From positions 83,890 through 147,889 of the IMG/VR virus record IMGVR_UViG_3300036861_000610: 64,000 bases of DNA, one strand, 5' to 3'. This DNA comes from a virus. The translations under genes and the position numbers were made by a program. Position 1 is the stretch's first letter, and every line of letters starts with the position of its first letter. The notes beneath the pieces were generated by a model. The model did not search any database, was not told where the DNA came from, and worked only from the letters and a program-made list of their open reading frames with translations. This document shows positions 1 to 56,531 of the stretch, one piece after another.

Positions 1-3000
1 TTCCGTCTCGACCAGATCATTGACGTCAATGACCCAGATTTCCCTGACGACGGGATCCCTGTCCGGGGTTTCAGGGCACATGGGTATGACGTCAAAGAGG
101 GGCGCCTGACTCGGCACGACGGCGTCCTCTACCTCACCGAGGAAGGGGACGGGCCGAAAGACAAGGAGCACCGCGAGCGCACCTTGAAGCAGGTTCAGGA
201 GTGGCAGGACAGTCTGCCAGAGAACGAGAAAAAGTACGTCAAGTCCATCTCCTCCTTCAGCGGCAATAGCCCGGGGGACAGTTACTGGCAGCAGCGCCGT
301 GGGCTACAGGACATGGTGGCTTCCGCGAGCGCCGGCAACGGTGAAATCTCCATCTGGAGACACGGTGGGGACTACGGGCACGGCTCCAACCCGGCGACCC
401 TCGACCATGAACTTGGCCACCTGATTGACGACAGGTACCAGTACTCCGGCGATGGACGATGGGAACATGCGGGGCAGTCCGACAACATCGGACTCAAGGG
501 TCGCGCCCCCGGCTTCAGCGGATTCAATCGCCTCAGCGATGAGGAAGCGGACACCGGCGGGAGGGACACCTACCGGTACGGCATCAGCAGGTATGGCACC
601 AGTGACACCGGCGAGGACTTTGCGGAGGCGTATTCCGCCTACAAGCGTGGCTGGGTTGGCACCATCGACGACCCTGACAACCCGGGCCGTCGGCGGAAGG
701 TCCACTTCCGCGAGCTGTACCCAGCTCGTGCCGCGATTTTCGATGGACTTTTCCCCGAGAGGGGAGTGGCGCAGCGGCGTGAGATCGCTGAATACATGGC
801 CAGAGACCCGGACCTTCGGGAGCTGACCGACTTCCACGAAGACTTCCTGGCTCAGGGCCTGTTGCACAAGAAGACCCTTCCTGAGCTGCGTGCCATCGCG
901 AAGAAGGTCGGAAGGTCGAAGTACGGCGCCACTCGTGAAGGCTTGATGCGCCACATCCTGGAGGGCACGAGAGGCCCGCAGTACCGGCCGCGGTCAGGTA
1001 TGTACGACACCTTGAAGCGGCTTGGCACCCGTGACGCGGCCCAGGAGCGGATGAAGGCCTACTCCCCGAGCCTGCTCCGGGAGCTGCTGCACGAGCTGGA
1101 CGTGGAGAGCCCCGGCCGGCGCCGCAGCCGCGAAGAGAAGACCACCGCCATCCTGGACAAGCTGTACCCACAGGCTCCAGCCCCAGCGAAGAAGGCCGTC
1201 GCCAAGGAGGCGGCAGCCCCGGCGGCTAAGGCCGTGAAGAAGGCTGCCCCTGCAAAGCTGACGCCGGCTCGCCTGCGTCGCGCACAGCATGCCGCAGCAG
1301 AGGAGCTTGCCAAAACTGCAGCCGACCTTGAAGAGAACATCGACAAGGGCGCGTCGGACCGGGCGCTTCTGCAGTTGGTGCGGACGCGACTTGCCCGACT
1401 GAAGATCAAGGATGTTGGCGACGAGTACGTCTGGCAGCGCCCAGGCGGCGACGTTCGCCTGGAGTCAGACCTAACCCCCACCGAGGATGCCGACATCCTC
1501 TCGGCCCGACGTCTTGCGGGATTGGGCCGTGCGGTGCAGCAGAACATCAACGACCGGTCGGCCATGCGGACAGCCATCCGGAAGAACCTGGCCGAACACG
1601 AGCTGACACCCATTGGCGCGGCCGGCGACAAGGTTAAGTACGACCCAGCCATCCATCAGCCGATGCGATCACTGCCCAAGGGAACTGCGGTTCAGGTTGT
1701 GCACCCGGGATACCAGTGGCGCACACCTGAAGGTACGTCCGAAACTATCCTGCGACCACTGGTGATGGAGGCCCCGTCGCCACGGAAGGTCACGGGTGCC
1801 GCGAAGCCAACGATCAAACGGGCCGCCAAGAAAGCTGCACCGTCGGCAAAGGCCGCCCCCGAGAAGCCAACGATCAAGCGGGCGGCCAAGAAAGCGGCTC
1901 CAACTGAAAGGCCACGGCTGCGCCAGGCTGAAACGGAACCCACTGTCCTCACCGGCCAGCAGGGTCGGATCACCAGCGACATGGGTCCACGCATCAACAC
2001 CGGCCCCGAAGGCATCCCCGCGAGGGACTACACCCTGCGATCCGGGTACCACGTCGACAACGGCACGTTCTACCGCATCGACAAAATCCCGTACCTTATC
2101 GAGCACGACGACACTCCCGAAGGAAAGGCCTACGCTGACGGAGTCCAGAAAGCCCTGCAAGCTCACCGCGTATCCCTGCCGCTGGAACGACGTCGACTGC
2201 AACGCTCCTACGCCTGGGTCCGCGGCCGGAACCCAAAGGACGTGGAGGCAGCTCACCGCCGTGGCCTCAATCCGGACAAATGGTTGAGTGACGCAACCTC
2301 CGACAGTATGGGCGGGATCACGGTCTACAACCGAGACGAGTTCGGCTTCGAAGGCGTCGACCAGACCTTGGACCATGAGTTCGCGCACAGCTTCGATCAC
2401 GCCGACACCCAGGCTGGCCTCGTGGGGGCAAGTTCGCCGGAGTGGCTTGACGCAGCGGCCTCCGACAACGTGCACCGCGCGACCCTGTCCGATGTCACCT
2501 TCGACCAGGGGCCGGGCGCCAACAGCACCATCCGACTGGAAAAGGCCAAGCCCCACCCTGAAATCGAAGGCCACTTCCCAGACGGTGCAACCGACTACGC
2601 TCTTGTCGACTCCGCCGAAGACTTCGCCGAAGCTTTCCGCCTCTACCGCGCCGGTCCAATCGGCAAGGGGCGACGCACCAAGGGTGGACCTATTGAGCCA
2701 CTGTGGTTCCGGGATGTTTTCCCGGCCCGTGCCGCCATCTTCGACGAAAAGCTTCCCGACTTTGCCGAGCGACAGTTGCGTCAGATCGAGCAGGCCCGCG
2801 GCGGGGACCTGTCGACGGCGCAACGGCGGGCACTGATCCGGAAGCTGATCAAGGAGCGTGACAACAGCGAGCGCAGCATCGCCTTCCGGGAGCTGGCCAA
2901 GAGCGCGCCACCAGAACGGGCTCGACGCCGCCCGGCGCCCGAGCCGGCGCCAGTTCAACCCACGAGGCGTAGATCTCTTCGCTCTCCATCTTCATCTCAA

Positions 3001-3993
3001 TCGCCATCATCGGCTCGACCGGCCGGCAGGACTGCTAGCGAGCGTCAAGAGATTGAAGACCTGATCCGTGGAGAATCCACCGATCGCGTCCCTCGTGCAC
3101 GGGTCCGCGACGGTCGACTCACTGGCCGAGTCGGAATTCTCGACCGGCTAAACGAGACTCTTCGTGCCGATACTGGGCCCGAAGGCATCCTGGTCCATGA
3201 CCTGGAGCTGCAAAATATCAATGGCTATAAGGTTCGCAATGGACGTGCGTGGCGGTTCAATGGCGTTACCTATCTACTTGAGGATGGAGCCGACCCGGTA
3301 AAATCCGCGGAGCTAATGGACGCCATTTATGCCGAACACAATGCCCTGCCGGCCGAGATGCGTGGATTCCAGCGCGCCTACGCGCTGCTTCAGCACCCAG
3401 ACGCGACGGACGCATACGAGGACGCTAAGGCGCGAATGGAGGCGCGCAGACTCGGTAACCCTCGTCCTAAGCCGAGCACCTGGCAAACATTGGCAGCGGC
3501 ACGTGGCGGCGACATCTACATTTTCCGGTTGGGTGAACCGGCCACTCAACTGACACCAATTGATCGAGTTACAAAAACGGTGCGCCACGAGGGGGGTCAC
3601 AACCTCGACAATCAGGGTCACGACAGCGGGCTTGGGCCGATTTCGTCGTCTTCAAGTTGGTCGGCCGCAACTCGACCAACCGCGCAGCCAGTGTTCGACT
3701 TCGACCAAAACGATCGAGGCTCGATTTCGCCAATAAGATTTGCGCCAAATGATGACGCGCCATTCCCGGGCGGCGTAACCAACTACGGCACTGCAAGCCC
3801 CTCAGAGGACTTCGCCGAGGCGGTCGCCCTGTATACCGCAGGCATCATCGGCCGTGGCCGACTCACCGAAAACGGTCCCATAGTGGACATCTATTTCCGA
3901 GACCTGTTCCCGGAGCGAGCCGCCGAGCTGGACCGATACATGCCGAACTTCGGCGCTGACCAGATGGCCTCCATCCGGAGACTGCGAAGCTAG
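1..3993 (+). CDS. Giant protein with three HExxH metallopeptidase modules (5' end outside window)
   Basis: The frame is open from the first base, so the true start lies upstream; 1,330 codons are visible. Three copies of one module occur, each about 250-280 residues. Each has an HExxH zinc motif (HELGH at 406-420, HEFAH at 2374-2388, HEGGH at 3586-3600), followed 60-80 residues later by an EDFAEA(F/Y/V) helix carrying the likely third zinc ligand Glu, and then by FRD(V/L)FPxRAA. This arrangement resembles the anthrax lethal factor-like (ATLF) peptidase family. Modules 1 and 2 are separated by a SAP/Rho-N-like helical stretch (LPELRAIAKKVGRSKYG) and by Lys/Ala/Pro-rich repeats (KPTIKRAAKKAAP, twice) like those of histone H1-type linkers. 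The gene sits directly before the capsid genes, where portal/MuF/protease genes usually lie. I infer a virion-internal, possibly ejected, protease-effector or a MuF-effector fusion. All three motifs look intact. Confidence 0.85.
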   Translation, partial: FRLDQIIDVNDPDFPDDGIPVRGFRAHGYDVKEGRLTRHDGVLYLTEEGDGPKDKEHRERTLKQVQEWQDSLPENEKKYVKSISSFSGNSPGDSYWQQRRGLQDMVASASAGNGEISIWRHGGDYGHGSNPATLDHELGHLIDDRYQYSGDGRWEHAGQSDNIGLKGRAPGFSGFNRLSDEEADTGGRDTYRYGISRYGTSDTGEDFAEAYSAYKRGWVGTIDDPDNPGRRRKVHFRELYPARAAIFDGLFPERGVAQRREIAEYMARDPDLRELTDFHEDFLAQGLLHKKTLPELRAIAKKVGRSKYGATREGLMRHILEGTRGPQYRPRSGMYDTLKRLGTRDAAQERMKAYSPSLLRELLHELDVESPGRRRSREEKTTAILDKLYPQAPAPAKKAVAKEAAAPAAKAVKKAAPAKLTPARLRRAQHAAAEELAKTAADLEENIDKGASDRALLQLVRTRLARLKIKDVGDEYVWQRPGGDVRLESDLTPTEDADILSARRLAGLGRAVQQNINDRSAMRTAIRKNLAEHELTPIGAAGDKVKYDPAIHQPMRSLPKGTAVQVVHPGYQWRTPEGTSETILRPLVMEAPSPRKVTGAAKPTIKRAAKKAAPSAKAAPEKPTIKRAAKKAAPTERPRLRQAETEPTVLTGQQGRITSDMGPRINTGPEGIPARDYTLRSGYHVDNGTFYRIDKIPYLIEHDDTPEGKAYADGVQKALQAHRVSLPLERRRLQRSYAWVRGRNPKDVEAAHRRGLNPDKWLSDATSDSMGGITVYNRDEFGFEGVDQTLDHEFAHSFDHADTQAGLVGASSPEWLDAAASDNVHRATLSDVTFDQGPGANSTIRLEKAKPHPEIEGHFPDGATDYALVDSAEDFAEAFRLYRAGPIGKGRRTKGGPIEPLWFRDVFPARAAIFDEKLPDFAERQLRQIEQARGGDLSTAQRRALIRKLIKERDNSERSIAFRELAKSAPPERARRRPAPEPAPVQPTRRRSLRSPSSSQSPSSARPAGRTASERQEIEDLIRGESTDRVPRARVRDGRLTGRVGILDRLNETLRADTGPEGILVHDLELQNINGYKVRNGRAWRFNGVTYLLEDGADPVKSAELMDAIYAEHNALPAEMRGFQRAYALLQHPDATDAYEDAKARMEARRLGNPRPKPSTWQTLAAARGGDIYIFRLGEPATQLTPIDRVTKTVRHEGGHNLDNQGHDSGLGPISSSSSWSAATRPTAQPVFDFDQNDRGSISPIRFAPNDDAPFPGGVTNYGTASPSEDFAEAVALYTAGIIGRGRLTENGPIVDIYFRDLFPERAAELDRYMPNFGADQMASIRRLRS

Positions 3994-6312: not shown

Positions 6313-7152
6313 ATGGCAAGTCTGACCGGTCCGCTTTATGTCCCGCCGCCGAATCCAATCGTTCCGCGGTACGGGCTGTTCAACGTCGCCAACGGACCCG
6401 TTGACCTTCCCATTAACGCCCGCATCGGTGGCCTGCAGTACCAGATTTCGACGTGCAACCTTCCCCTTGAATACGAGGTGGAATGCCAGGACGCGCACAA
6501 CACCAAGGTCATTACCTCTGGCGTTACGACCGTCACCGGCGCGCCGTTCATCGTCTATTCGGCCATTCAATGCGGCACCGTCGGCCTGGTCGACTTCGGC
6601 CAGGAGCAGGTTAAGCGCTACCTGTACGACCAGCTCATTGCTGGCGAGCAGGCCACTGTCGAAAGCATCTTCTCGCAGGGCCTCGTCGGCCAGTTCCCGT
6701 CGCTGCAGACCGGCGCCGTTTCCCTGGGTGCTGCCCAGGGGCCAGTGCAGGCCGTCAGCATGCTGGAGGACTGGATTTACGCCCGGTTCGGGTCCAGGGC
6801 CGTTATCCATGCCCCGATGGAGGCCGCGGCCTACTTCAAGGCCGCACACCTGATTGAGCCTGACGGCAACGTCAATGCAGGTGGCGTCTGGCGCACGGAC
6901 GTCGGTACAGCAGTCAGTTTTGGCAACTACGCAGGCGTGGGGCCAACTGGACAGGCCGGTACATGGATCTATGTCACGGGACCGCTCACCATTTGGCGCA
7001 CCCCAGACACTGAACTGTTTGTGCCACCCATGGGTCAGGTCATTAACCGAACCACCAACGTCTTGACCATCGTCATGGAGCGGGAGTACGTGCTCGCCTT
7101 CGACTGCTATTCGGCGGCCGTAAACGTAACCCTCAATACGGTGGACCGATAA
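6313..7152 (+). CDS. Putative minor capsid or head structural protein (279 aa)
   Basis: Starts at ATG after GAAAGGGGGTGA, 23 nt past the terminator. The beta-rich sequence (GPLTIWRTPDTELFVPPMGQ, MEREYVLAFDCYSAAVNVTL) with few charged stretches resembles a folded shell or head-surface protein. It includes an encapsulin/capsid-like C-terminal pattern, but I cannot assign a fold with confidence. It has its own strong ribosome site and sits between the capsid and tail tube genes. Alternatives are a second capsid-like subunit or a vertex/decoration protein. Confidence 0.7.
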   Translation: MASLTGPLYVPPPNPIVPRYGLFNVANGPVDLPINARIGGLQYQISTCNLPLEYEVECQDAHNTKVITSGVTTVTGAPFIVYSAIQCGTVGLVDFGQEQVKRYLYDQLIAGEQATVESIFSQGLVGQFPSLQTGAVSLGAAQGPVQAVSMLEDWIYARFGSRAVIHAPMEAAAYFKAAHLIEPDGNVNAGGVWRTDVGTAVSFGNYAGVGPTGQAGTWIYVTGPLTIWRTPDTELFVPPMGQVINRTTNVLTIVMEREYVLAFDCYSAAVNVTLNTVDR

Positions 7153-7506
7153 ATGCCGCTGATGCGCGAGTGGGTTGAGATCCACGTGGATGAGGATTTG
7201 CTCATCCACGTGGTTCGCGAGCTGCTTTCGCTGGCAGTGAACCCGAACCAGGTTGAGGTCACGTACGGCACCGCCGGCCGCATCATCCTGGCCGAGATTC
7301 ACCTTGCTGATGCTTGGTACCAGATGCGTCTGGCCAAGGAAGAAGCCGAAGGCGATGGCACCGAAGTGCACGCCAGCGGCTTCGAAGTTGTTGATAGCGC
7401 GAAGATTGAAAATTCAAACTCTGCTGAGTCAACAACCGTCCCAACGCCCGCCAAGCGAGCGTCTGCACCAAAACCCTCCGCTTCTCCTAACGGCGAGGAT
7501 TCGTAA
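7153..7506 (+). CDS. Hypothetical head/neck protein (117 aa)
   Basis: The ATG follows the previous stop codon with no gap, which suggests coupled translation. Residues 1-70 predict helices and strands (EWVEIHVDEDLLIHVVRELL, TAGRIILAEIHLADAW); residues 75-117 are a low-complexity Ser/Pro/Ala tail. No family recognised. Its place between head and tail-tube genes suggests a neck or head-completion function. Confidence 0.65.
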   Translation: MPLMREWVEIHVDEDLLIHVVRELLSLAVNPNQVEVTYGTAGRIILAEIHLADAWYQMRLAKEEAEGDGTEVHASGFEVVDSAKIENSNSAESTTVPTPAKRASAPKPSASPNGEDS

Positions 7507-8201
7507 TGGCAACAGTTTGTTTCACCCCATTCAAGATCCCGCGGATCCGGGTGACGCGGCTGAACTCGTGCGGCCAGGTCGTTACGGGTAGCTGCTCGCA
7601 GGTCGTGTCCGACGGCATCATTTCCATCGAAATGACGAAGAACTACGAGGACCGTGAAGAGTTCTTCGTCAAGAACGGTGACGGTACGTTCTGTGTCCGT
7701 GAGACCAACCCGCCGATCCTGAAGTGGATCGACTTGGTCATCACCCTGTGCAATATTGACCCAGACATCGTCAACATCGTCGCGGCTGAACCGTTGTACA
7801 CGTCTAACGACACTGCGGCCACAAAGATCGGTTACTCGACCGACGAGAACTCGGCCCAGAACGTGAACTTCAGCCTGGAGGGTTGGACTCGTCTGGCCAA
7901 CACGGCGACGCTGTGCACGGGTGGCCAAGAGTATGGATACTTCCTCTGGCCGTGGGTCGTGGAGGGCACGATCGGCGACATGACGTTGGAGAACGGCGTC
8001 GCCAACTTCACCATCAACGCGCGTACTCATGGCAACTCGCTGTGGGGCGTTGGTCCATACAACGTCGACTACAGCGATAACCCAATCGGGTCTACGACGC
8101 CGGTACCGATGAACACACCCATCACATCCACGCAGCACAGCCGCATGTTTATTACGCGGCTGCCACCGCCAGCGGCTAGCTGTGGCTGCGCAGCAGTGTA
8201 A
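7506..8201 (+). CDS. Major tail protein (tail tube)
   Basis: Forms the tail tube. The sequence is beta-rich with many short turns (VSDGIISIEMTKNYEDREEF, VEGTIGDMTLENGVANFTIN), as in siphovirus tube proteins that bind 'tail tube plus Ig' folds. Length 231 aa fits the family. It ends in a Cys-rich tail (SCGCAAV). The start overlaps the upstream stop by one base. The gene precedes a pair of palindromes and sits several genes before the chaperones and tape measure, a common but not universal order. High copy number is expected. Confidence 0.7.
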   Translation: MATVCFTPFKIPRIRVTRLNSCGQVVTGSCSQVVSDGIISIEMTKNYEDREEFFVKNGDGTFCVRETNPPILKWIDLVITLCNIDPDIVNIVAAEPLYTSNDTAATKIGYSTDENSAQNVNFSLEGWTRLANTATLCTGGQEYGYFLWPWVVEGTIGDMTLENGVANFTINARTHGNSLWGVGPYNVDYSDNPIGSTTPVPMNTPITSTQHSRMFITRLPPPAASCGCAAV

Positions 8202-44556: not shown

Positions 44557-44585
44557 AGTATCAGGGGAGGGTAGGGGTACGTCAA
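44557..44585 (-). promoter_or_regulatory. Strong leftward promoter
   Basis: TTGACG-17-GATACT on the minus strand, with TAGGGGT (on +) inside the spacer. It drives the run of genes from 44476 leftward. Best-matching promoter in the window; it overlaps the end of the DUF2493-like gene by 4 nt. Confidence 0.65.
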
Positions 44586-45004
44586 GGGTTGATCAAAGAA
44601 AGTTGCTGGTCAAGGCACCTCGGCCGCCAGGGCGTGCTCCGCACCTCGATGCCGGCCCGGCGGGCCAGATTCATGCAGTTGATCGTCCCCCGAGACCCGG
44701 GCCCCGGGAACCCGAGACAGACCGCGGCCCCCAGGTTGACCATCTTGGCGTTGCGCTCGGGCCCCAGGATGCGGCCGTTTACCTTGCGGGCTGGGTGAGG
44801 TTCAACCTTGAAGCCGTGGGCGATGGCCCACTGCTCGGACCAGAGATCGGCACCGCCGTACTCACACTGGCCGTGGACCAGAACGAACTCAGCTGGAAGT
44901 TGGCAAGCTACTACAAATTCGTCGAGTTTCTGCCAGACGATGTCCTTGTCGGCCTCGGGCCAGTCCCTCCAGCCGGTGGTCAAAATTCTTACAGGAAGTT
45001 CCAT
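44582..45004 (-). CDS. DUF2493/YspA-like SLOG-family protein (140 aa)
   Basis: VRILTTGWRDWPEADKDIVW, VHGQCEYGGADLWSEQWAIA, ERNAKMVNLGAAVCLGFPGP and GTINCMNLARRAGIEV match the DUF2493 member of the SLOG nucleotide-binding superfamily. SLOG proteins bind nucleotides or their derivatives, often in stress or defence systems. Bordered upstream by a short pentamer array. Confidence 0.85.
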   Translation of the reverse strand: MELPVRILTTGWRDWPEADKDIVWQKLDEFVVACQLPAEFVLVHGQCEYGGADLWSEQWAIAHGFKVEPHPARKVNGRILGPERNAKMVNLGAAVCLGFPGPGSRGTINCMNLARRAGIEVRSTPWRPRCLDQQLSLINP

Positions 45005-45025
45005 CGTCGCACCCCTTCCTGAAAT

Positions 45026-45093
45026 CCCTAACCAGACCATGCCCTGCCGTGCCACGCCGGACCTAACCCGACCGAACCTGACCCCACCGAGTT
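45026..45093. repeat. Degenerate pentamer array A (short)
   Basis: About 68 nt of GCCNN/ACCNN units on the + strand (CCTAACCAGACCATGCCCTG, CCGGACCTAACCCGACC), i.e. GGNNN on the transcribed strand. It fills the gap between the gene at 45094 and the DUF2493-like gene. Confidence 0.8.
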
Positions 45094-45646: not shown

Positions 45647-45931
45647 CCCCACCTAACCGAACCTAGCCCAACCTAGCCTTGCCCGACCTGACCCAACCGA
45701 ACCAAGCCAAGCCCGAGGCCCCTACCCAGCCCAACCCCACCAAGCCGGGCCTGACCGTACCGAACCACAGAAGCCTTACGGTACCCAACCTCACCGGACC
45801 GAACCGCGCCCAGCCAGGCCATAGAAGCTTGTGCCCCCCGACTCCCTACCAAACCCAGCCATGCCCCACCGGACAATGCCTGACCACGCCTAGCCTGACC
45901 GCACCAAACCACACCATGCGGAACCCAACCA
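45647..45931. repeat. Degenerate pentamer array B
   Basis: About 285 nt with a 5-nt phase of CC dinucleotides on the + strand (ACCTAACCGAACCTAGCCCA, CCAAGCCAAGCCCGAGGCCC). It has no convincing gene; frames through it are low-complexity Pro/Thr/Asn runs. It fills the whole gap between the stop of the gene at 45937 and the ribosome site of the gene at 45636. Confidence 0.85.
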
Positions 45932-45936
45932 AAAAG

Positions 45937-46527
45937 CTAGACGACTTCTACGGCAGCATCAAAGCGCCCATACTGCTGCCTGTAGTCGCCAAATCCATAA
46001 AGCTTTCCACCGATAACGGCAATATCGGTCAGTTCGTCGGCATCAATGACGCCAGGGTCGAGCACGATGTCAGATTCCATCGACCAGTTCTTGAACATGG
46101 GCCGGCAGCGGTCAATCTTCGCCTGGCCGACACGGGCGGAGCGGAAGTCAACAAACTCACTGGCCCCACTGTCACCCCAGAGCCCTTCAATGGTGCGTGG
46201 GCCTTTGTATAGCAGCGGATGGACAAGTTCGACGATGACGATGCCGCCCTCGATCTTCTTGCCGCGCCGGCCCGATCGAGCAGCTTCGAGAAGGTTCTTG
46301 AAGATCCAGCTGGCCGGGATGTACGGGCCGATGCCTTCCTCGAAGTACAGGCCGCCCTCCCACTCCACGCGCGCAATCTCCAACCGATCCTCGTCAGTGC
46401 GCTTGCTCGACGGCTTGGCCTTGTTGAGGCGCGACATCTCCTTGGCGAAGGGGTCGAGCGGTGAAGCAAGGCGCACGTTGTGCATGAGCAGTGGACGTGT
46501 GCCGGTCGCCGTCAGTCTGACCTTCAT
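45937..46527 (-). CDS. GTxPLLxH family protein 1, RAMP-like candidate (196 aa)
   Basis: Begins KVRLTATGTRPLLMHNVRLA, middle region YIPASWIFKNLLEAARSGRR and IVIVELVHPLLYKG, and a C-terminus IDRCRPMFKNWSMESDIVLD with a glycine-rich loop GGKLYGFGDYRQQYGRF. The same blocks occur in the protein at 53243 (GTSPLIIHR, RYRPEFSEW, GVGEWRPEKKGDMG). The glycine-rich loop after a beta-strand resembles that of RAMP/Cas7-type folds; I infer a nucleic-acid-binding role but no family search was done. ATG chosen over upstream Pro-rich frame. Confidence 0.8.
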   Translation of the reverse strand: MKVRLTATGTRPLLMHNVRLASPLDPFAKEMSRLNKAKPSSKRTDEDRLEIARVEWEGGLYFEEGIGPYIPASWIFKNLLEAARSGRRGKKIEGGIVIVELVHPLLYKGPRTIEGLWGDSGASEFVDFRSARVGQAKIDRCRPMFKNWSMESDIVLDPGVIDADELTDIAVIGGKLYGFGDYRQQYGRFDAAVEVV

Positions 46528-46555: not shown

Positions 46556-46867
46556 CTAGTAGGGTCGACTTTCGGTGAGTAGCCTGGCCACGGTGGCGGC
46601 CGTCTGGCCGGTCTCCCGGGCAATGTCTTGGGGCATCATGCCGTTCTGCCTGGCAGCCCTGGCAGCAGAGCGACGAATGGTGGCAGTTCCGCCCATTAAC
46701 TGATCTCGCATCAGGGCAATAACTTCGCCCGCAATAACGATGGTTTGCACTTCGTCGTGGCCGGTGAGGATAGTGGTCAGGCACGCCCGTAGCTGGGCTT
46801 GGGCTGGTGTGTCGACCCACTCGTCCGGTGGCCTCAGTGTGTCTTCGACGAGTTGGTCTTTGATCAT
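46556..46867 (-). CDS. HTH protein (103 aa)
   Basis: C-terminal helix-turn-helix (MPQDIARETGQTAATVARLL) of a sigma/Xre-like type preceded by a helical domain (ACLTTILTGHDEVQTIVIAG). Probably a DNA-binding regulator for this region. RBS AGGAGGTCCACCAC. Confidence 0.75.
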   Translation of the reverse strand: MIKDQLVEDTLRPPDEWVDTPAQAQLRACLTTILTGHDEVQTIVIAGEVIALMRDQLMGGTATIRRSAARAARQNGMMPQDIARETGQTAATVARLLTESRPY

Positions 46868-47779: not shown

Positions 47780-48023
47780 CGTCTTCACCTCCCGGGAAAC
47801 GCAGGATTGTGGGCCAGTTCTGCTTCAGTTCTTCAATGTCTTCCGGCGTGAGCGTTCCGTGCCGCTTGCAGTCCCGACATTCTTTGCCTGGATTGTGGCC
47901 CACGGAGTACAGCACGTCGGTATGCCGATTGAACCAGCGACATCGCAGCAGAAATGCCGAGCGAAACACCCGGTCACGCCACCGGGTGTCCCACTCGATC
48001 CGTACATTGCGGAAAATTCTCAT
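47748..48023 (-). CDS. Hypothetical basic protein (91 aa)
   Basis: Arg-rich start (RIFRNVRIEWDTRWRDRVFR), then ECRDCKRHGTLTPEDIEELK with a CxxC. Overlaps the next gene by 32 nt. No family recognised. Confidence 0.65.
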   Translation of the reverse strand: MRIFRNVRIEWDTRWRDRVFRSAFLLRCRWFNRHTDVLYSVGHNPGKECRDCKRHGTLTPEDIEELKQNWPTILRFPGGEDDEVAMESPPK

Positions 48024-48304
48024 GGACTGACGTCCTGGATCATGGCCTCTAGCTTGCGCAAGGTGGCCAACATTGCGTCGTGTTGTTCAATGGGCGTTGG
48101 CGGTTCGTATGGGTCCCGCTGGCACCGGGCGCAGTCACTGACCGGATGGTCATAGACCGTTACGAGGTGGTAGCAGTCAGGTCGGCCGGCAACATTCGGG
48201 TGGCATAGGGGTAGCAAATTATGTTCCCCGAAGCCGCCCTCATAGTCGCCCATCTGGCGTCCACAGTGGGTGCAGACATTGGGCCGGATGAACTCCACCT
48301 CCAT
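48020..48304 (-). CDS. Zinc-binding hypothetical protein (94 aa)
   Basis: VCTHCGRQMGDYEGGFGEHN, CHPNVAGRPDCYHLV and DCARCQRDPYEPP give three Cys/His pairs. ATG 48304 is preceded by GGGGGAC; an ATG four codons earlier is possible. Confidence 0.7.
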   Translation of the reverse strand: MEVEFIRPNVCTHCGRQMGDYEGGFGEHNLLPLCHPNVAGRPDCYHLVTVYDHPVSDCARCQRDPYEPPTPIEQHDAMLATLRKLEAMIQDVSP

Positions 48305-48325
48305 TGCGTCCCCCATTTCCGGGTT

Positions 48326-48520
48326 TTAGTCGAACTCGCCGGCCTTCACGCCGACCAACCACGCCTTCCATTCCGCGGACGTGAAACGCAGAAGTGGGCC
48401 ATTTGGGTCCTTCGAATCACGCACCAGTCGATCGGTGCCATCGAGTGCAACTTGGACGCATTCCGAGCTGGTGGCACTGTCGCTAGACTTGCGCCACTCC
48501 AGGTCGGTTTGTTCGTTCAT
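48326..48520 (-). CDS. DUF397 protein (64 aa)
   Basis: LEWRKSSDSATSSECVQVAL, then VRDSKDPNGPLLRFTSAEWK and AWLVG match the DUF397 family. It is abundant in Streptomyces, where members such as BldB pair with Xre regulators in developmental control. ATG 48520 follows AAGGAGG. Rare as phage cargo. No Xre partner sits beside it. Confidence 0.9.
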   Translation of the reverse strand: MNEQTDLEWRKSSDSATSSECVQVALDGTDRLVRDSKDPNGPLLRFTSAEWKAWLVGVKAGEFD

Positions 48521-48533
48521 GAATTCCTCCTTG

Positions 48534-48989
48534 TCACAGGTTTTCTTGAATAATCTTCTTGGCTTCGGCCACCATGCCACTGACCTCGTGCACCGCATTG
48601 CGCAGCGTGCGGTGCGGGTTGCTCGGCAGCTCCAGTTCGGTTACCAGAGTCTCGATGGATTCCCTGATCTCGCTCTCCAGGCCGATGAGCTTGGCGATCT
48701 GCAGGTCAATCTGGTCGCGCTGCCCGGCCATGGTGCGAACCAGTTCAGCACTAGCAGCCTGGCTGGCCAGAAGGGCCTCTTCGATGACCACCCGCAGAGT
48801 CATTGCCTCATTACGATCCAGGCCGAAAGAGTCTTGAATCTGCCGGACGGCGCTTCGATTGGCCCGGTCCAGCTCTTCAGCCTTGGCTTCCAGGACCCGG
48901 ATGCGGTCCTTCTGGCCAATCTCATCGCGGGCCCACTTGGACAGCGTTGCCTGGATATCCTCCAGGCGAACTTCAATCGCCACAGTCAC
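48534..48989 (-). CDS. Hypothetical coiled-coil protein (151 aa)
   Basis: Long helices (VLEAKAEELDRANRSAVRQI, LRVVIEEALLASQAASAELV, LESEIRESIETLVTELELPS). GTG start. Structural or adaptor role possible. Begins inside the small membrane gene that precedes it. Confidence 0.7.
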   Translation of the reverse strand: MTVAIEVRLEDIQATLSKWARDEIGQKDRIRVLEAKAEELDRANRSAVRQIQDSFGLDRNEAMTLRVVIEEALLASQAASAELVRTMAGQRDQIDLQIAKLIGLESEIRESIETLVTELELPSNPHRTLRNAVHEVSGMVAEAKKIIQENL

Positions 48990-51484: not shown

Positions 51485-51782
51485 TGTTAGACCCCCTATT
51501 TCCAAATTTTCTGGGAGGCGATTTTCAAATCAACGCATCGATGTACTTAGACTCATGTATGCCTGCCAAGCCAAGCCCCACCTAGCCGAACGTTGCCCTG
51601 CCTGCCGCACCGCGCCTACCGGACCGTGCCGAGCCATGCCATCCCCACTATGGCCTCACCGTGCCTGCCCTGCCGTACCAAGCTTCAACAGACCCAGCCC
51701 CGCCTCACCTGCCCCGCCTCACCGTGCCTGACCAAAACACACCTCGCCTGCCGTGCCTTGCCTAGCCCCGCCTTACCTACCT

Positions 51783-51811
51783 AGCCACACCTTGTCGTTG
51801 TGGACCCCGCC
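51783..51811. repeat. 29-bp exact direct repeat inside array C, copy 1
   Basis: The segment starting AGCCACACCTTGTCGTTGTG is repeated exactly at 52062-52090. It contains an inverted pair (CCACA/TGTGG). Recent duplication inside the array is likely. Confidence 0.85.
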
Positions 51812-52061
51812 ACGCCTGCCCTGCCAAGCCGAACCATTCCACGCCTGACCGTGCCTGCCGGGCCGCACCTTGCCATGCCAAAGGACGCCGAGCCCTGTCA
51901 CGCCGAACCTGCCGTACCCCACCATTCCCCGCCGAGTCCTACCTCGCCTGCCATGCCACGCCGGGCCGTAACCAACCTTGCCGGATCTTGCCCTGCCTGC
52001 CACGTCATGCCATGTCGAACCTCGCCAAGCCCATCCGAAACTCGCCTGCCCCGCCGCACCC

Positions 52062-52090
52062 AGCCACACCTTGTCGTTGTGGACCCCGCC
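52062..52090. repeat. 29-bp exact direct repeat inside array C, copy 2
   Basis: Second copy of the segment at 51783; both end in GGACCCCGCC and are followed by different pentamers. Confidence 0.85.
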
Positions 52091-52781
52091 TTGTCACGCC
52101 GTGCCATGCCTGCCCTACCACACCTAGTCGGACCCGAACTCGCCTAGCCGATACCCACCGCGCCTGCCCCGCCGTACCTTGACTTGCCGCGCCATGCCAG
52201 AACTAGCCCTCGCCTCGCCTGCCACGCCTTGTGAAACCTAACCCCACCAAACCGAGCCGGACCCCGTCTTGTTAAACCCAGCCAAGCCCTACCCCAGCCA
52301 CGCCTGCCACACCATGCCCCGCCGAGCCTTTCCTCACCACACCGCACCGGGGCTGCCGCACCTAACCTCACCGCGCCATGTCTCGCCATGCCTGCCCAGC
52401 CGTAACGCCCCTCACCGTGCCCAACCTCGCCATGCCTGCCGAACCTTGCCTCGACGTACCCAGCCCTACCGGGTCCTACCGCCACCTCACCGCGCCTGCC
52501 GAACCTGGCCATATGCTGCCGTGCCGAACCCCGCCACGCCTGCCTAGCCATACCTCGCCGAGCCCCGCCCCCCCCTAGCCTGCCTAGCCGCGCCTCGTTT
52601 CACCCCACCGAGCCTTGTCACAACGCGCCACACCTGCCTCACCCAACCGCACCATGCCATGCCATGACGAACCACGCCTGCCGCGCCCTACGATGCCTTG
52701 CCACAACCGGTATTTCCCTGCCATGCCTGCCTTGCCTTGCCGCACCATGCCTAGATAGCCGAGCCGCACCTGCCATGTCCT

Positions 52782-53242: not shown

Positions 53243-53887
53243 CTACTTCTGGACGTCCTTGTTGGTGAGGACCTCGATGTCACGCTCCGGGTCGATCATG
53301 TAGGTGCCCATGTCGCCCTTCTTCTCCGGCCGCCACTCCCCGACGCCGACGCCCATGCCTCCGGCGTCGATGAGGGACAAGACGGAGGCCTGCGTCAGCT
53401 GTGAGGTCACGTAGGTGACCCGCAGCTCGGTCTTCCACTCCGAGAATTCGGGGCGGTAACGCAGGTCGGTGCCGCCGTTGCCGACGCGCACGACGTCTTC
53501 GCGCTTCTTGGGCTCGCCTTCGATGATGGCGAGCTGCTGCCCATCCACGCCGACCTCACCGCGGAAGAACAGCACCTGCCGGAGCAGGGTCATCGTGACT
53601 CCGGCGAAGAACCGTGCGCCGCCGATGGTCGATGCCTTGAAGGCGATAACCGGAAGCCCGTACGCGCCATCGTTGGTGCGGTAGAACGCCGCCTCGTACT
53701 CGGCGTCGGGGTCCTTCGGCTGCTTGGGGGTCTTGCGCCCCTGCATCGCGTCGAGCATCTGCTTCTTCGCCTTCTCGGAGAAGCGGTGGATGATCAGCGG
53801 CGACGTCCCCACGATGGGGACGATGAGCGTCTCCGCGTCGATGCGAGGGATCTCGATGATGTTGGTTGTCTTTGCTGCCGTTGCCAT
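53243..53887 (-). CDS. GTxPLLxH family protein 2, RAMP-like candidate (214 aa)
   Basis: IVPIVGTSPLIIHRFSEKAK starts the fold; GLPVIAFKASTIGGARFFAG, LRYRPEFSEWKTELRVTYVT and GGMGVGVGEWRPEKKGDMG repeat the blocks of the protein at 45937. The glycine-rich loop near the C-terminus recalls RAMP proteins. Strong RBS TGGAGGAG. Preceded on the transcript by array D. Confidence 0.8.
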   Translation of the reverse strand: MATAAKTTNIIEIPRIDAETLIVPIVGTSPLIIHRFSEKAKKQMLDAMQGRKTPKQPKDPDAEYEAAFYRTNDGAYGLPVIAFKASTIGGARFFAGVTMTLLRQVLFFRGEVGVDGQQLAIIEGEPKKREDVVRVGNGGTDLRYRPEFSEWKTELRVTYVTSQLTQASVLSLIDAGGMGVGVGEWRPEKKGDMGTYMIDPERDIEVLTNKDVQK

Positions 53888-53925: not shown

Positions 53926-54853
53926 CATGCCGTGCCGCACCATGCCTTCCTCTCCGAGGAGAGGCTGTACCTTTCCTGACTCGCCTGCCTAGACGTGCCA
54001 AGCCTTCCCGGGCCGGGTCTCACCGAGCCAAGCCACACCTCACCTGCCCCACCCCGCCTAGCCTGCCAAACCGCGCCGTGCCACGACGAACCACGCCTGC
54101 CAAGCCATGCCCTGCCTTCACGTACCCCGCCAAACCGAGCCTGCCCTGCCGGACCAAACCCCAACTCCCCGAACCTGGCCACGCCACGCCCCGCGATGCC
54201 TGCCGAACCCCGCCTTACCCGAAAGAGCCGGGACTTGCCACGCCTGCCCTGCCTCGCCGGACGGTGCCTTACCCAAACGAAACGTGCCGTGCCGCGCCTG
54301 CCTTGCCCTACCATTGCTTGCCGCACCGGGCCTAGCCACAACACACCTCACCTGCCGTACCGAACCGCACCGGATCGAGCCGGGCCCTACCTGCCATGCC
54401 TCTCCTAGCCACACCCCGCCTCGCCTGCCATGCCCGACCCAGCCCCTCCTAACCCCTCGGCGCCGTGCCCCACCTGCCCTACCGCTCCGGACCATTACAC
54501 GCCTGACCGTGCCTAGCCACATCCCGCCTGCCTCACCACATCAAGCAAGCCTCGCCACACCTCGCCCTGCCTGCCATGCCACATCGCGCCAAGCCCAGCC
54601 TTACCATTCCTGCCGGACCGAGCCTTGCCAAGCCCCACCTGACCCCTCCTGACCAGACCGTGCCTGCCGGGCCGCACCCCGCCTCGTCCAGCCTCACCTC
54701 ACCTGCCATGTCGTGCCGCATCACGCCACGCCTCAACTCGCCCCACCTGCCATGCCGAGCCGTGCCATTACTAACCACTCCGAGCCCTACCTCACCTGCC
54801 CAGCCCTGCCTAGCCACATGAAGCCGCGCCCTGTGAAGCCCAACCCCACCACG
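53926..54853. repeat. Degenerate pentamer array D (0.93 kb)
   Basis: Same unit as the other arrays (CCTGCCAAACCGCGCCGTGC, CCTCGCCACACCTCGCCCTG). No gene; frames through it are low-complexity. It fills the gap between the stop codon of the gene at 54855 and the leader of the gene at 53887, where a short hairpin breaks the pattern. Confidence 0.9.
53949..53964. repeat. Hairpin at the array D end next to the gene leader
   Basis: CCTCTCC and GGAGAGG form a 7-bp stem around GA, separating the array from the leader of the downstream gene. It may stop array structure spreading into the ribosome site. Confidence 0.5.
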
Positions 54854-54854
54854 C

Positions 54855-55016
54855 CTATTGCCGAGTGTCGATGCTGAACGAGAAGCGGCCAAGACTGATC
54901 ATGAAGGTGAACATGTCGCCGCCCCAGCTGATCCAGACCCAGCCGTTGTCACTTTTGTAGGCGGGTCCCTGCTCGGGACTGCGAGTGAGGATGCGGCGGG
55001 GGATGAAGTTTTTCAT
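54855..55016 (-). CDS. Small hypothetical protein (53 aa)
   Basis: MKNFIPRRILTRSPEQGPAY, GWVWISWGGDMFTFMISLGR and FSFSIDTRQ. ATGA coupling with the next upstream gene fixes the start. Beta-rich; unknown function. Followed at once by array D. Confidence 0.65.
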   Translation of the reverse strand: MKNFIPRRILTRSPEQGPAYKSDNGWVWISWGGDMFTFMISLGRFSFSIDTRQ

Positions 55017-55389: not shown

Positions 55390-55866
55390 CTAGTTTTCTG
55401 GCTCTCCAACGGCCTCGATCAGGGTGCCGAGGGCAGCGTCAATGCGCAGGAGCTTGGCTTTCTGGTCGGCGACCTTGACCCGCAGTGCCCGGCTCTCTTC
55501 TCTGATGCGACGCAGCTCCGCCGCCTGGTCGAGGCTGCCTTGGGTCTGGCGAACGATGAGGGATTCGCCCAACTCCTGAATCAAAGTCCTCAGGGCATCG
55601 GCAGTGCTGTCGACCCATTTTCCGCGGAAAACCCTAACTCCTGAAGCTGTTTTAGTGACAAGGGCGGCGCGGACGAGGGTGCCGTCGGTGCCGTTGCCCA
55701 CCTCGTAGCGCAGTTCGATGGTCTCGTCGTTCACCTCGCGTTGCATATCCTCTCCTTCGCCGTTCATTGCTCGACGCATTGCTTCCACTTCTTCGGGAGG
55801 AAGTCGATGAACAATCAGCGGCTTGGTGCCGATGAGGATAAGCGGATCGTCTGGGCCCTTACTCAC
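55390..55866 (-). CDS. GTxPLLxH family protein 3, divergent and shortened (158 aa)
   Basis: LILIGTKPLIVHRLPPEEVE aligns with GTSPLIIHRFSEKAK; AMNGEGED and KTASGVRVFRGKW match AMQGRKTP and STIGGARFFAG. The C-terminal half is replaced by coiled coil (ELRRIREESRALRVKVADQK), and the RPxFxxW and glycine-loop blocks are absent. GTG 55866 shares GTGA with the upstream stop. Confidence 0.7.
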   Translation of the reverse strand: MSKGPDDPLILIGTKPLIVHRLPPEEVEAMRRAMNGEGEDMQREVNDETIELRYEVGNGTDGTLVRAALVTKTASGVRVFRGKWVDSTADALRTLIQELGESLIVRQTQGSLDQAAELRRIREESRALRVKVADQKAKLLRIDAALGTLIEAVGEPEN

Positions 55867-56531
55867 GCTTGACCCACCTTCTGGGTGCACAGGTGCTTGG
55901 TGGAGGCCTCAACGAGGTCAGCGACGCTCATGCCTGGAGTAATGGTCATGACGTCGCAGACGGGCTCATCGTCGCCGCGGTCGTGTACCAGGTAGGCGTG
56001 CCGGGAGGTGAACACGTACTCGTCGAGGCCTTCCAGGTCGATGTGGTGGGGGCCCAGGTCGGCTTCGTCGGCGATGAAGAAGTCGTCGAGGAACCGACGT
56101 TCCTCTTCGGCGACTTCGTGCTCGAATTCGTCGGGCCAATAGTCGGCCATCTCGGCTTCGGTGCCGCCGGCCTCGACTGCCTTGGTTTCCTGCTTACCGG
56201 TCATGGGGGCTCCAGTGATGGGGGTCGAGGCGGCAGCCAGTGACGCAAACGATTGATCGAGTCTGATGAGACGTTTGATGTCGTCCATGCGGTAGAAGCC
56301 TTTGATGCCGGCGCAGAGGAACACGATGAACGGCAGCATCCACCAGCCGTAGTCGTCGATGTACCGGACGAAGCCGAAGAAGAGCGCGAAGAAGAAGCTC
56401 ATGCCCGTCGCGATGATGCTGCAGTTCTTCCACTCCTCGCGCACAGGGATGGCGCTGGCCAAAAGAAAGGCGGCCAGCCCCAGCACAGTGGCAAGGATAA
56501 GGAGGACGGTGCGGGTCAGCAGGATGCCCAT
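55863..56531 (-). CDS. Membrane protein with acidic cytoplasmic domain (222 aa)
   Basis: Three hydrophobic segments near the N-terminus (VLLILATVLGLAAFLLASAI; CSIIATGMSFFFALFFGFVR; WWMLPFIVFLCAGIKGFY), followed by an acidic region (EFEHEVAEEERRFLDDFFIA) and a DDEPVCDVMTITPGMSVADL end. Unknown function. Confidence 0.7.
   Translation of the reverse strand: MGILLTRTVLLILATVLGLAAFLLASAIPVREEWKNCSIIATGMSFFFALFFGFVRYIDDYGWWMLPFIVFLCAGIKGFYRMDDIKRLIRLDQSFASLAAASTPITGAPMTGKQETKAVEAGGTEAEMADYWPDEFEHEVAEEERRFLDDFFIADEADLGPHHIDLEGLDEYVFTSRHAYLVHDRGDDEPVCDVMTITPGMSVADLVEASTKHLCTQKVGQA

What the first reader, a model, noticed from the sequence alone, without database searches (positions are those of the whole stretch)
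48326..48520. Phage-encoded DUF397 protein
DUF397 proteins (BldB type) act with Xre partners in development and antibiotic control of Streptomyces. A phage copy without a neighbouring Xre gene could titrate or replace host proteins and shift the host developmental state during infection.
Basis: partly seen in the sequence, partly recalled or inferred. Interest (0 to 1): 0.65.

Follow-up and report, generated by a model that had tools for sequence, protein, structure and literature searches.

The report
Partnerless DUF397 gene in large actinophages
A large, apparently strictly lytic virus of soil actinobacteria carries a lone copy of a small bacterial developmental-switch protein without its usual partner, and many related uncultivated viruses do the same, so it may be a tool for tampering with the host's development and antibiotic switches during infection.

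Summary
Window 48326-48520 (-) encodes a complete 64-aa DUF397 protein (PF04149, E 4.9e-18) with a perfect AAGGAGG ribosome site. It lies in a 147.9-kb tailed actinophage record with no other DUF397, no Xre/HTH_31, no DUF5753 and no integrase. The orphan state is recurrent. Among 79 non-redundant viral DUF397 loci, 40 have no Xre/DUF5753 gene nearby, against 5 of 80 host loci. All cultured phages inspected carry the Xre-DUF397 pair. Phages sampled by portal homology carry DUF397 in 6-7 of 9-10 records of 50 kb or more, none with DUF5753. A sister phage (portal 85% identical) has a different DUF397 (44%) at a different place, so the gene is swapped or gained repeatedly. Orphan viral copies often carry 2-5 in-frame repeats of the N-terminal WxKSSxSxxxGxCVEV unit (16/40, versus 1/36 paired viral and 3/80 host); the window copy has one unit and an unusual CVQ in place of CVE. 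Best explanation, inferred: it acts in trans on the host's WhiJ/Scr1-type Xre and DUF397 network. Neither the direction (mimic or sponge) nor a Streptomyces host is shown.

The parts
48326..48520 (-). Orphan DUF397 CDS, 64 aa; one N-terminal W9-K11-S-S...C21-V-Q unit, RDSKDP motif 34-39, C-terminal helix 48-59
   Evidence: Pfam PF04149 E 4.9e-18; phrog_10815; AlphaFold2 model pLDDT 85, four strands and a helix; CVQ instead of CVE and W54 instead of F
48526..48532 (-). Shine-Dalgarno AAGGAGG, 5 nt before the DUF397 ATG
   Evidence: read from sequence
48534..48989 (-). Upstream neighbour, 151-aa protein of unknown family; stop 13 bp before the DUF397 start
   Evidence: no PHROG, only sub-threshold Pfam hits
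48020..48316 (-). Downstream neighbour, 98-aa Cys/His-rich protein, start 9 bp after the DUF397 stop; unknown family
46556..46867 (-). 103-aa protein with a weak helix-turn-helix-like C-terminus; the only DNA-binding candidate among the flanking ORFs scanned, not Xre-DUF5753
   Evidence: PF09339 E 0.002, below cut-off

Best explanation
The gene makes a stand-alone DUF397 protein that works in trans on the host. Filamentous actinomycetes carry many Xre-DUF5753 (WhiJ/Scr1-type) regulators, each paired with a DUF397 protein. The phage protein would enter that network by hetero-oligomerising with host DUF397 proteins and/or binding the DUF5753 part of the Xre regulators, and would hold some developmental, antibiotic or conflict-system loci in the state that suits phage growth. 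Shown here: the gene, the absence of a phage partner, the predicted family fold, the recurrence of orphan DUF397 in related lytic-looking actinophages, its rapid turnover between sister phages, and the frequent repetition of its N-terminal unit in orphan viral copies. Inferred: that the partner is a host protein, and that the effect is on host regulation. Not decided: whether it imitates the host subunit or soaks up its partners.
For: No Xre/HTH_31, DUF5753 or integrase in the whole 147.9-kb record, and none of the 15 portal-related or orphan records tested has DUF5753 (positive probe). Viral loci without Xre/DUF5753 nearby 40/79, host loci 5/80, Fisher p 1.6e-10. Portal-sampled relatives: 7 of 10 records of 50 kb or more carry DUF397, 6 of 9 without G031, whose portal was part of the query. 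Sister phage G048 (portal 85%) has a DUF397 only 44% identical, in a region syntenic to a different part of this phage: turnover as expected for host-interaction genes. Strong ribosome site and complete domain. Multi-unit proteins 16/40 in orphan viral loci versus 1/36 paired viral (p 7e-5) and 3/80 host. Literature: DUF397 paralogues hetero-oligomerise, BldB acts without binding DNA, and its loss activates WhiJ9-dependent genes (PMC10294661); Scr1 needs Scr2 (PMC6262351); Streptomyces development contains phage spread and 24% of analysed actinophage genomes encode WhiB-like regulators (PMC10117723).
Against: No binding, expression or phenotype data. The host is unknown. In cultured phages DUF397 was found only with its own Xre, so a partnerless phage function has no precedent. 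The window copy lacks the repeated units and carries CVQ where 69 of 72 relatives have CVE, which could mean changed or weakened function. The enrichment tests do not control for descent: the 62-column tree is unresolved and the paired test is powerless. Some IMG/VR contigs may be host fragments.
Confidence: 0.5

Rival explanations
1. Counter-defence: the phage DUF397 specifically jams host conflict systems that use DUF397 proteins (for example the VMAP-ternary systems) or Xre-DUF397 gated defence loci; the repeated units in other phages serve as a multivalent sponge.
For: DUF397 genes without HTH partners are linked to about 4% of VMAP-ternary conflict systems (PMC7159879). Rapid turnover and non-syntenic position between sister phages. 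Tandem genes and tandem units in orphan phage copies. In L003 the orphan DUF397 sits between QueC and QueD/QueE, the 7-deazaguanine genes that phages use for DNA modification.
Against: No defence target identified. The window copy has a single unit. The flanking genes are unknown and no known anti-defence gene was recognised among those scanned.
Confidence: 0.17
2. It works with a phage protein of another family, for example the HTH-like protein at 46556-46867, as a phage-internal transcription switch.
For: Weak HTH match a few genes downstream on the same strand; gaps of 13 bp and 9 bp to its direct neighbours suggest one transcript.
Against: The HTH hit is below the family cut-off and is neither Xre nor DUF5753. 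Orphan DUF397 in relatives lies in other neighbourhoods, such as next to the terminase.
Confidence: 0.12
3. Neutral leftover: an Xre-DUF397 pair was captured from a host or prophage, the Xre was lost, and the DUF397 drifts.
For: Loss of a conserved residue of the CxE motif; DUF397 is scattered across the tree among hosts.
Against: Intact domain with a perfect ribosome site; recurrence in 6-7 of 9-10 long records sampled by portal alone; duplicated genes and units in relatives. Drift would not produce these.
Confidence: 0.13
4. It is the toxin half of a type II toxin-antitoxin pair, used to kill or arrest the host.
For: DUF397-Xre was once predicted as a toxin-antitoxin pair (PMC2701414).
Against: Fourteen S. 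coelicolor DUF397 proteins and Scr2 were not toxic when overexpressed (PMC10364602; PMC6262351).
Confidence: 0.04

Closest known systems
DUF397 partners of Xre-DUF5753 regulators (Scr2/SCO4442, SCO4542, BldB2-BldB11)
   Same: Same Pfam family over the whole domain, same size (63-91 aa), RDSKDP motif, W-K-S-S...C unit, four strands and a helix predicted
   Different: No Xre-DUF5753 gene beside it or in the phage; CVQ for CVE; phage gene
BldB (canonical, Streptomyces)
   Same: A DUF397 protein encoded without an Xre neighbour that is thought to act through other DUF397 proteins
   Different: BldB has an extended N-terminus and few DUF397 consensus residues (PMC10294661); the window protein is a short, canonical DUF397
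Xre-DUF397 pairs of temperate actinophages (Picard, Mojorita, Samy, PIS 136, Ididsumtinwong, Austintatious, Success)
   Same: Phage-borne DUF397, 38-51% identical to the window protein where compared
   Different: Those lie directly behind an Xre gene, mostly with an integrase in the same region; this phage has neither
WhiB-like proteins of actinophages
   Same: Small host-type developmental regulator carried by phages
   Different: Unrelated family (iron-sulphur transcription factors)

Membership tests
DUF397 (PF04149) | Profile match above gathering score over the full domain | tested here: met
   65.5 bits versus 24, positions 1-55/55
DUF397 (PF04149) | CxE motif in strand 2 (as given in PMC7159879) | tested here: not met
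   C21-V22-Q23; E in 69 of 72 aligned relatives. A family hallmark but not absolute: Q also in L018 and L098, which pass the profile
DUF397 (PF04149) | RDS motif at end of strand 3 | tested here: met
   R34-D35-S36
DUF397 (PF04149) | Four beta-strands and a terminal helix | tested here: met
   E9-11, E22-27, E30-35, E43-46, H48-59; pLDDT 85
Xre-DUF397 pair | Adjacent Xre (HTH_31) - DUF5753 gene | tested here: not met
   None beside it or in the record
BldB proper | Extended N-terminus and divergent DUF397 consensus | tested here: not met
   64 aa, canonical consensus; BldB description from PMC10294661
BldB-like function (hetero-oligomerises with DUF397 paralogues) | Binding to host DUF397 proteins | not testable with these tools
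   needs two-hybrid or pull-down
Type II toxin-antitoxin | Toxicity relieved by an Xre partner | not testable with these tools
   no partner encoded; literature negative for 15 relatives

The most novel reading that the evidence does not exclude
Uncultivated, integrase-free actinophages have repeatedly turned a host regulatory subunit (DUF397) into a partnerless viral effector, and in many of them multiplied its N-terminal beta-strand unit (up to five copies, plus tandem genes) to make a multivalent decoy for the host's whole Xre-DUF397 network; the window phage carries the single-unit form.
Probability: 0.3. Interest if true: 0.8.

Novelty: new variant of a known kind. Interest (0 to 1): 0.55.

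Why it matters
What BldB and its many DUF397 paralogues do biochemically is a long-standing open question in Streptomyces development. Phages that keep only the DUF397 half give naturally separated, evolution-tested versions of this subunit, some with several copies of the presumed interaction unit. They could be used to learn which host proteins DUF397 touches, and whether the Xre-DUF397 network takes part in phage containment, which Streptomyces development is known to affect.

Tried and rejected
- DNA-level relatives of the region in named phages: none.
- A solved homologue: none by sequence or by fold. The best fold hit is AcrF1 at E 0.2, TM 0.52, which is not significant and not used (viral library).
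- Phylogeny of 159 DUF397 domains: 62 usable columns and 4 starred branches, so no placement of the window copy. Phylogenetically independent pairs test powerless.
- A structure of a natural Xre-DUF397 fusion (L082) to read the interface: the mixed alignment misplaced the DUF397 rows (A5), so it was not folded.
- The five-unit protein L034: the extra N-terminal units fold with low confidence (pLDDT 31-51), so no claim on their structure.
- Toxin reading: rejected on published overexpression data.
- Repeats as a phage-only invention: rejected. Three host proteins (L113, L116, L150) have them too.
- Integrase-free versus integrase-bearing orphans differing in repeats: not significant (12/25 vs 3/15, p 0.10).

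Full report
Observation. The window is bases 83,890-147,889 of a 147,889-bp virus record. At 48326-48520 on the minus strand lies a 64-aa ORF whose whole length matches Pfam DUF397 (E 4.9e-18) and phrog_10815. Its start carries AAGGAGG five bases upstream, the strongest ribosome site among its neighbours. The neighbours on either side, 13 and 9 bases away on the same strand, belong to no known family.

The phage. The record encodes a portal (phrog_776), major head protein (phrog_777), tape measure, primase and an RNA-binding protein (phrog_850), and a T4-type terminase. Its portal is at most about 36% identical to portals of named Arthrobacter and Actinoplanes phages among the best hits, and no named phage matches the region at the DNA level. 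It is thus a tailed actinophage without a close cultured relative. No tyrosine integrase or serine recombinase was found, which suggests a lytic life style, although the record may be incomplete.

Orphan state. The record has one DUF397, no HTH_31 and no DUF5753. The DUF5753 probe works, because it rings in three other viral records. In the named phages inspected the DUF397 gene directly follows an Xre gene: PIS 136, Picard and Samy, Success and Ididsumtinwong. Austintatious and Bioscum show an HTH gene under the same match. All phage DUF397 proteins found in the named collection thus appear to be paired.

Recurrence. A profile scan of IMG/VR brought 80 viral loci and of GTDB genomes 80 host loci. 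After removing duplicates, 40 of 79 viral loci had no Xre/DUF5753 gene within the fetched flanks (about 4 kb), against 5 of 80 host loci within 3 kb (p 1.6e-10). Nine orphan records also encode a homologue of this phage's portal; eight of these have no integrase. To avoid choosing by DUF397, I sampled IMG/VR by the portal. Of ten records of 50 kb or more, seven carry DUF397; six of nine if G031, whose portal was in the query, is left out. None has DUF5753. The closest relative, G048 (158 kb, portal 85%), carries a DUF397 only 44% identical to this one, just downstream of its terminase. That region is syntenic to this phage's 30-41 kb, not to 132 kb where this DUF397 lies. The gene is therefore gained, moved or replaced often within one phage group, the pattern of accessory host-interaction genes.

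Shape. AlphaFold2 gives four strands and a C-terminal helix at pLDDT 85, as described for the family (PMC7159879). No solved structure is related by sequence or fold. Against 72 relatives the window protein differs at two near-invariant places: Q23 for the E of the CxE motif, and W54 for F. The two relatives in that alignment that share Q are also orphans (L018, a related phage, and L098, a metagenome bin).

Repeats. Many orphan viral proteins repeat the first 20 or so residues (WxKSSxSxxxGxCVEV) in frame before one complete domain: five units in L034, three in L041, L019 and L070, two in a dozen more. Several records have tandem DUF397 genes. Multi-unit proteins make up 16 of 40 orphan viral loci, 1 of 36 paired viral loci and 3 of 80 host loci (one host hit of the automatic count, L108, was spurious). 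Relatives found through the portal show the same, with further divergence of the RDSKDP motif to RNS. The extra units were not folded with confidence. The window copy has one unit.

Mechanism. Published work shows that DUF397 paralogues hetero-oligomerise, that BldB does not bind DNA, and that its loss activates WhiJ9-dependent genes (PMC10294661). Scr1 (Xre) needs Scr2 (DUF397) to activate antibiotics (PMC6262351), and overexpressed DUF397 proteins are not toxic but change pigment and development (PMC10364602). Streptomyces development limits phage spread and phages carry other developmental regulators (PMC10117723). The most likely reading is that the phage protein acts in trans on host DUF397/Xre proteins. 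Whether it imitates the host subunit or sequesters its partners cannot be told. This step is inferred.

Limits. The host is unknown. IMG/VR records can be host fragments and are mostly incomplete. Unit counts rest on a pattern. The tree of 62 columns resolves almost nothing, so the associations are not corrected for descent. No paper in the held library describes orphan phage DUF397, but most subscription papers and all preprints are missing from it.

Verdict. A real, well-formed member of a known family in an unusual setting, and one case of a recurrent viral class that seems undescribed. Interest is moderate to good: the family's function is an open question that these viral versions could help to answer.

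Noticed in passing
L034:3803-4195, L041:3908-4165, L019:3887-4192, L070, L018, L029, L044, L055, L057, L061, L072-L074, L275, L279: Viral orphan DUF397 proteins with 2-5 in-frame repeats of the N-terminal WxKSSxSxxxGxCVEV unit before one complete domain; some in tandem gene arrays (L029, L057, L275, L278).
   Followed up: partly
G000:C1 72016-87882 (reaches into the window, 1-3993): A single 5,288-aa ORF between the portal region and the major head protein; no Pfam match except a sub-threshold zinc-peptidase-like stretch near the C-terminus.
   Followed up: partly
L274:6320-8554 (sister phage G048, 158 kb): The terminase large subunit holds an in-frame insert that begins with Cys and ends in HN-C, with an HNH-endonuclease-like ORF (7066-7545) nested in another frame: looks like an intein with a nested homing endonuclease gene.
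   Followed up: partly
L003:5100-8013: An orphan DUF397 sits between QueC and QueD/QueE-like 7-deazaguanine genes in an integrase-free phage contig.
   Followed up: partly
window 53243-53887 and 55390-55890 (minus): Two proteins with a shared N-terminal stretch (GTxPLIxHR, BLASTP E 4e-7 for the pair); 45937-46527 (phrog_4652, unknown function) looks similar by eye (TRPLLMHN) but matches only weakly elsewhere.
   Followed up: partly
window about 45660-45930, 51550-52780, 54000-55000: Strand-skewed, low-complexity GC-rich stretches (GCCTCACC-like words) between gene blocks of the right arm; only weak tandem repeats by TRF, strong C/G skew at 52151-52400 and 54301-54800.
   Followed up: no
L082:1897-2937: Natural fusion of an Xre-DUF5753 regulator with a DUF397 domain in a viral contig, useful for modelling the interface.
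   Followed up: no
window 44582-45055 (minus): YspA/cpYpsA-like SLOG-family protein (PF10686, E 7.6e-9), a nucleotide-ligand family often linked with conflict systems (the link is from general knowledge).
   Followed up: no
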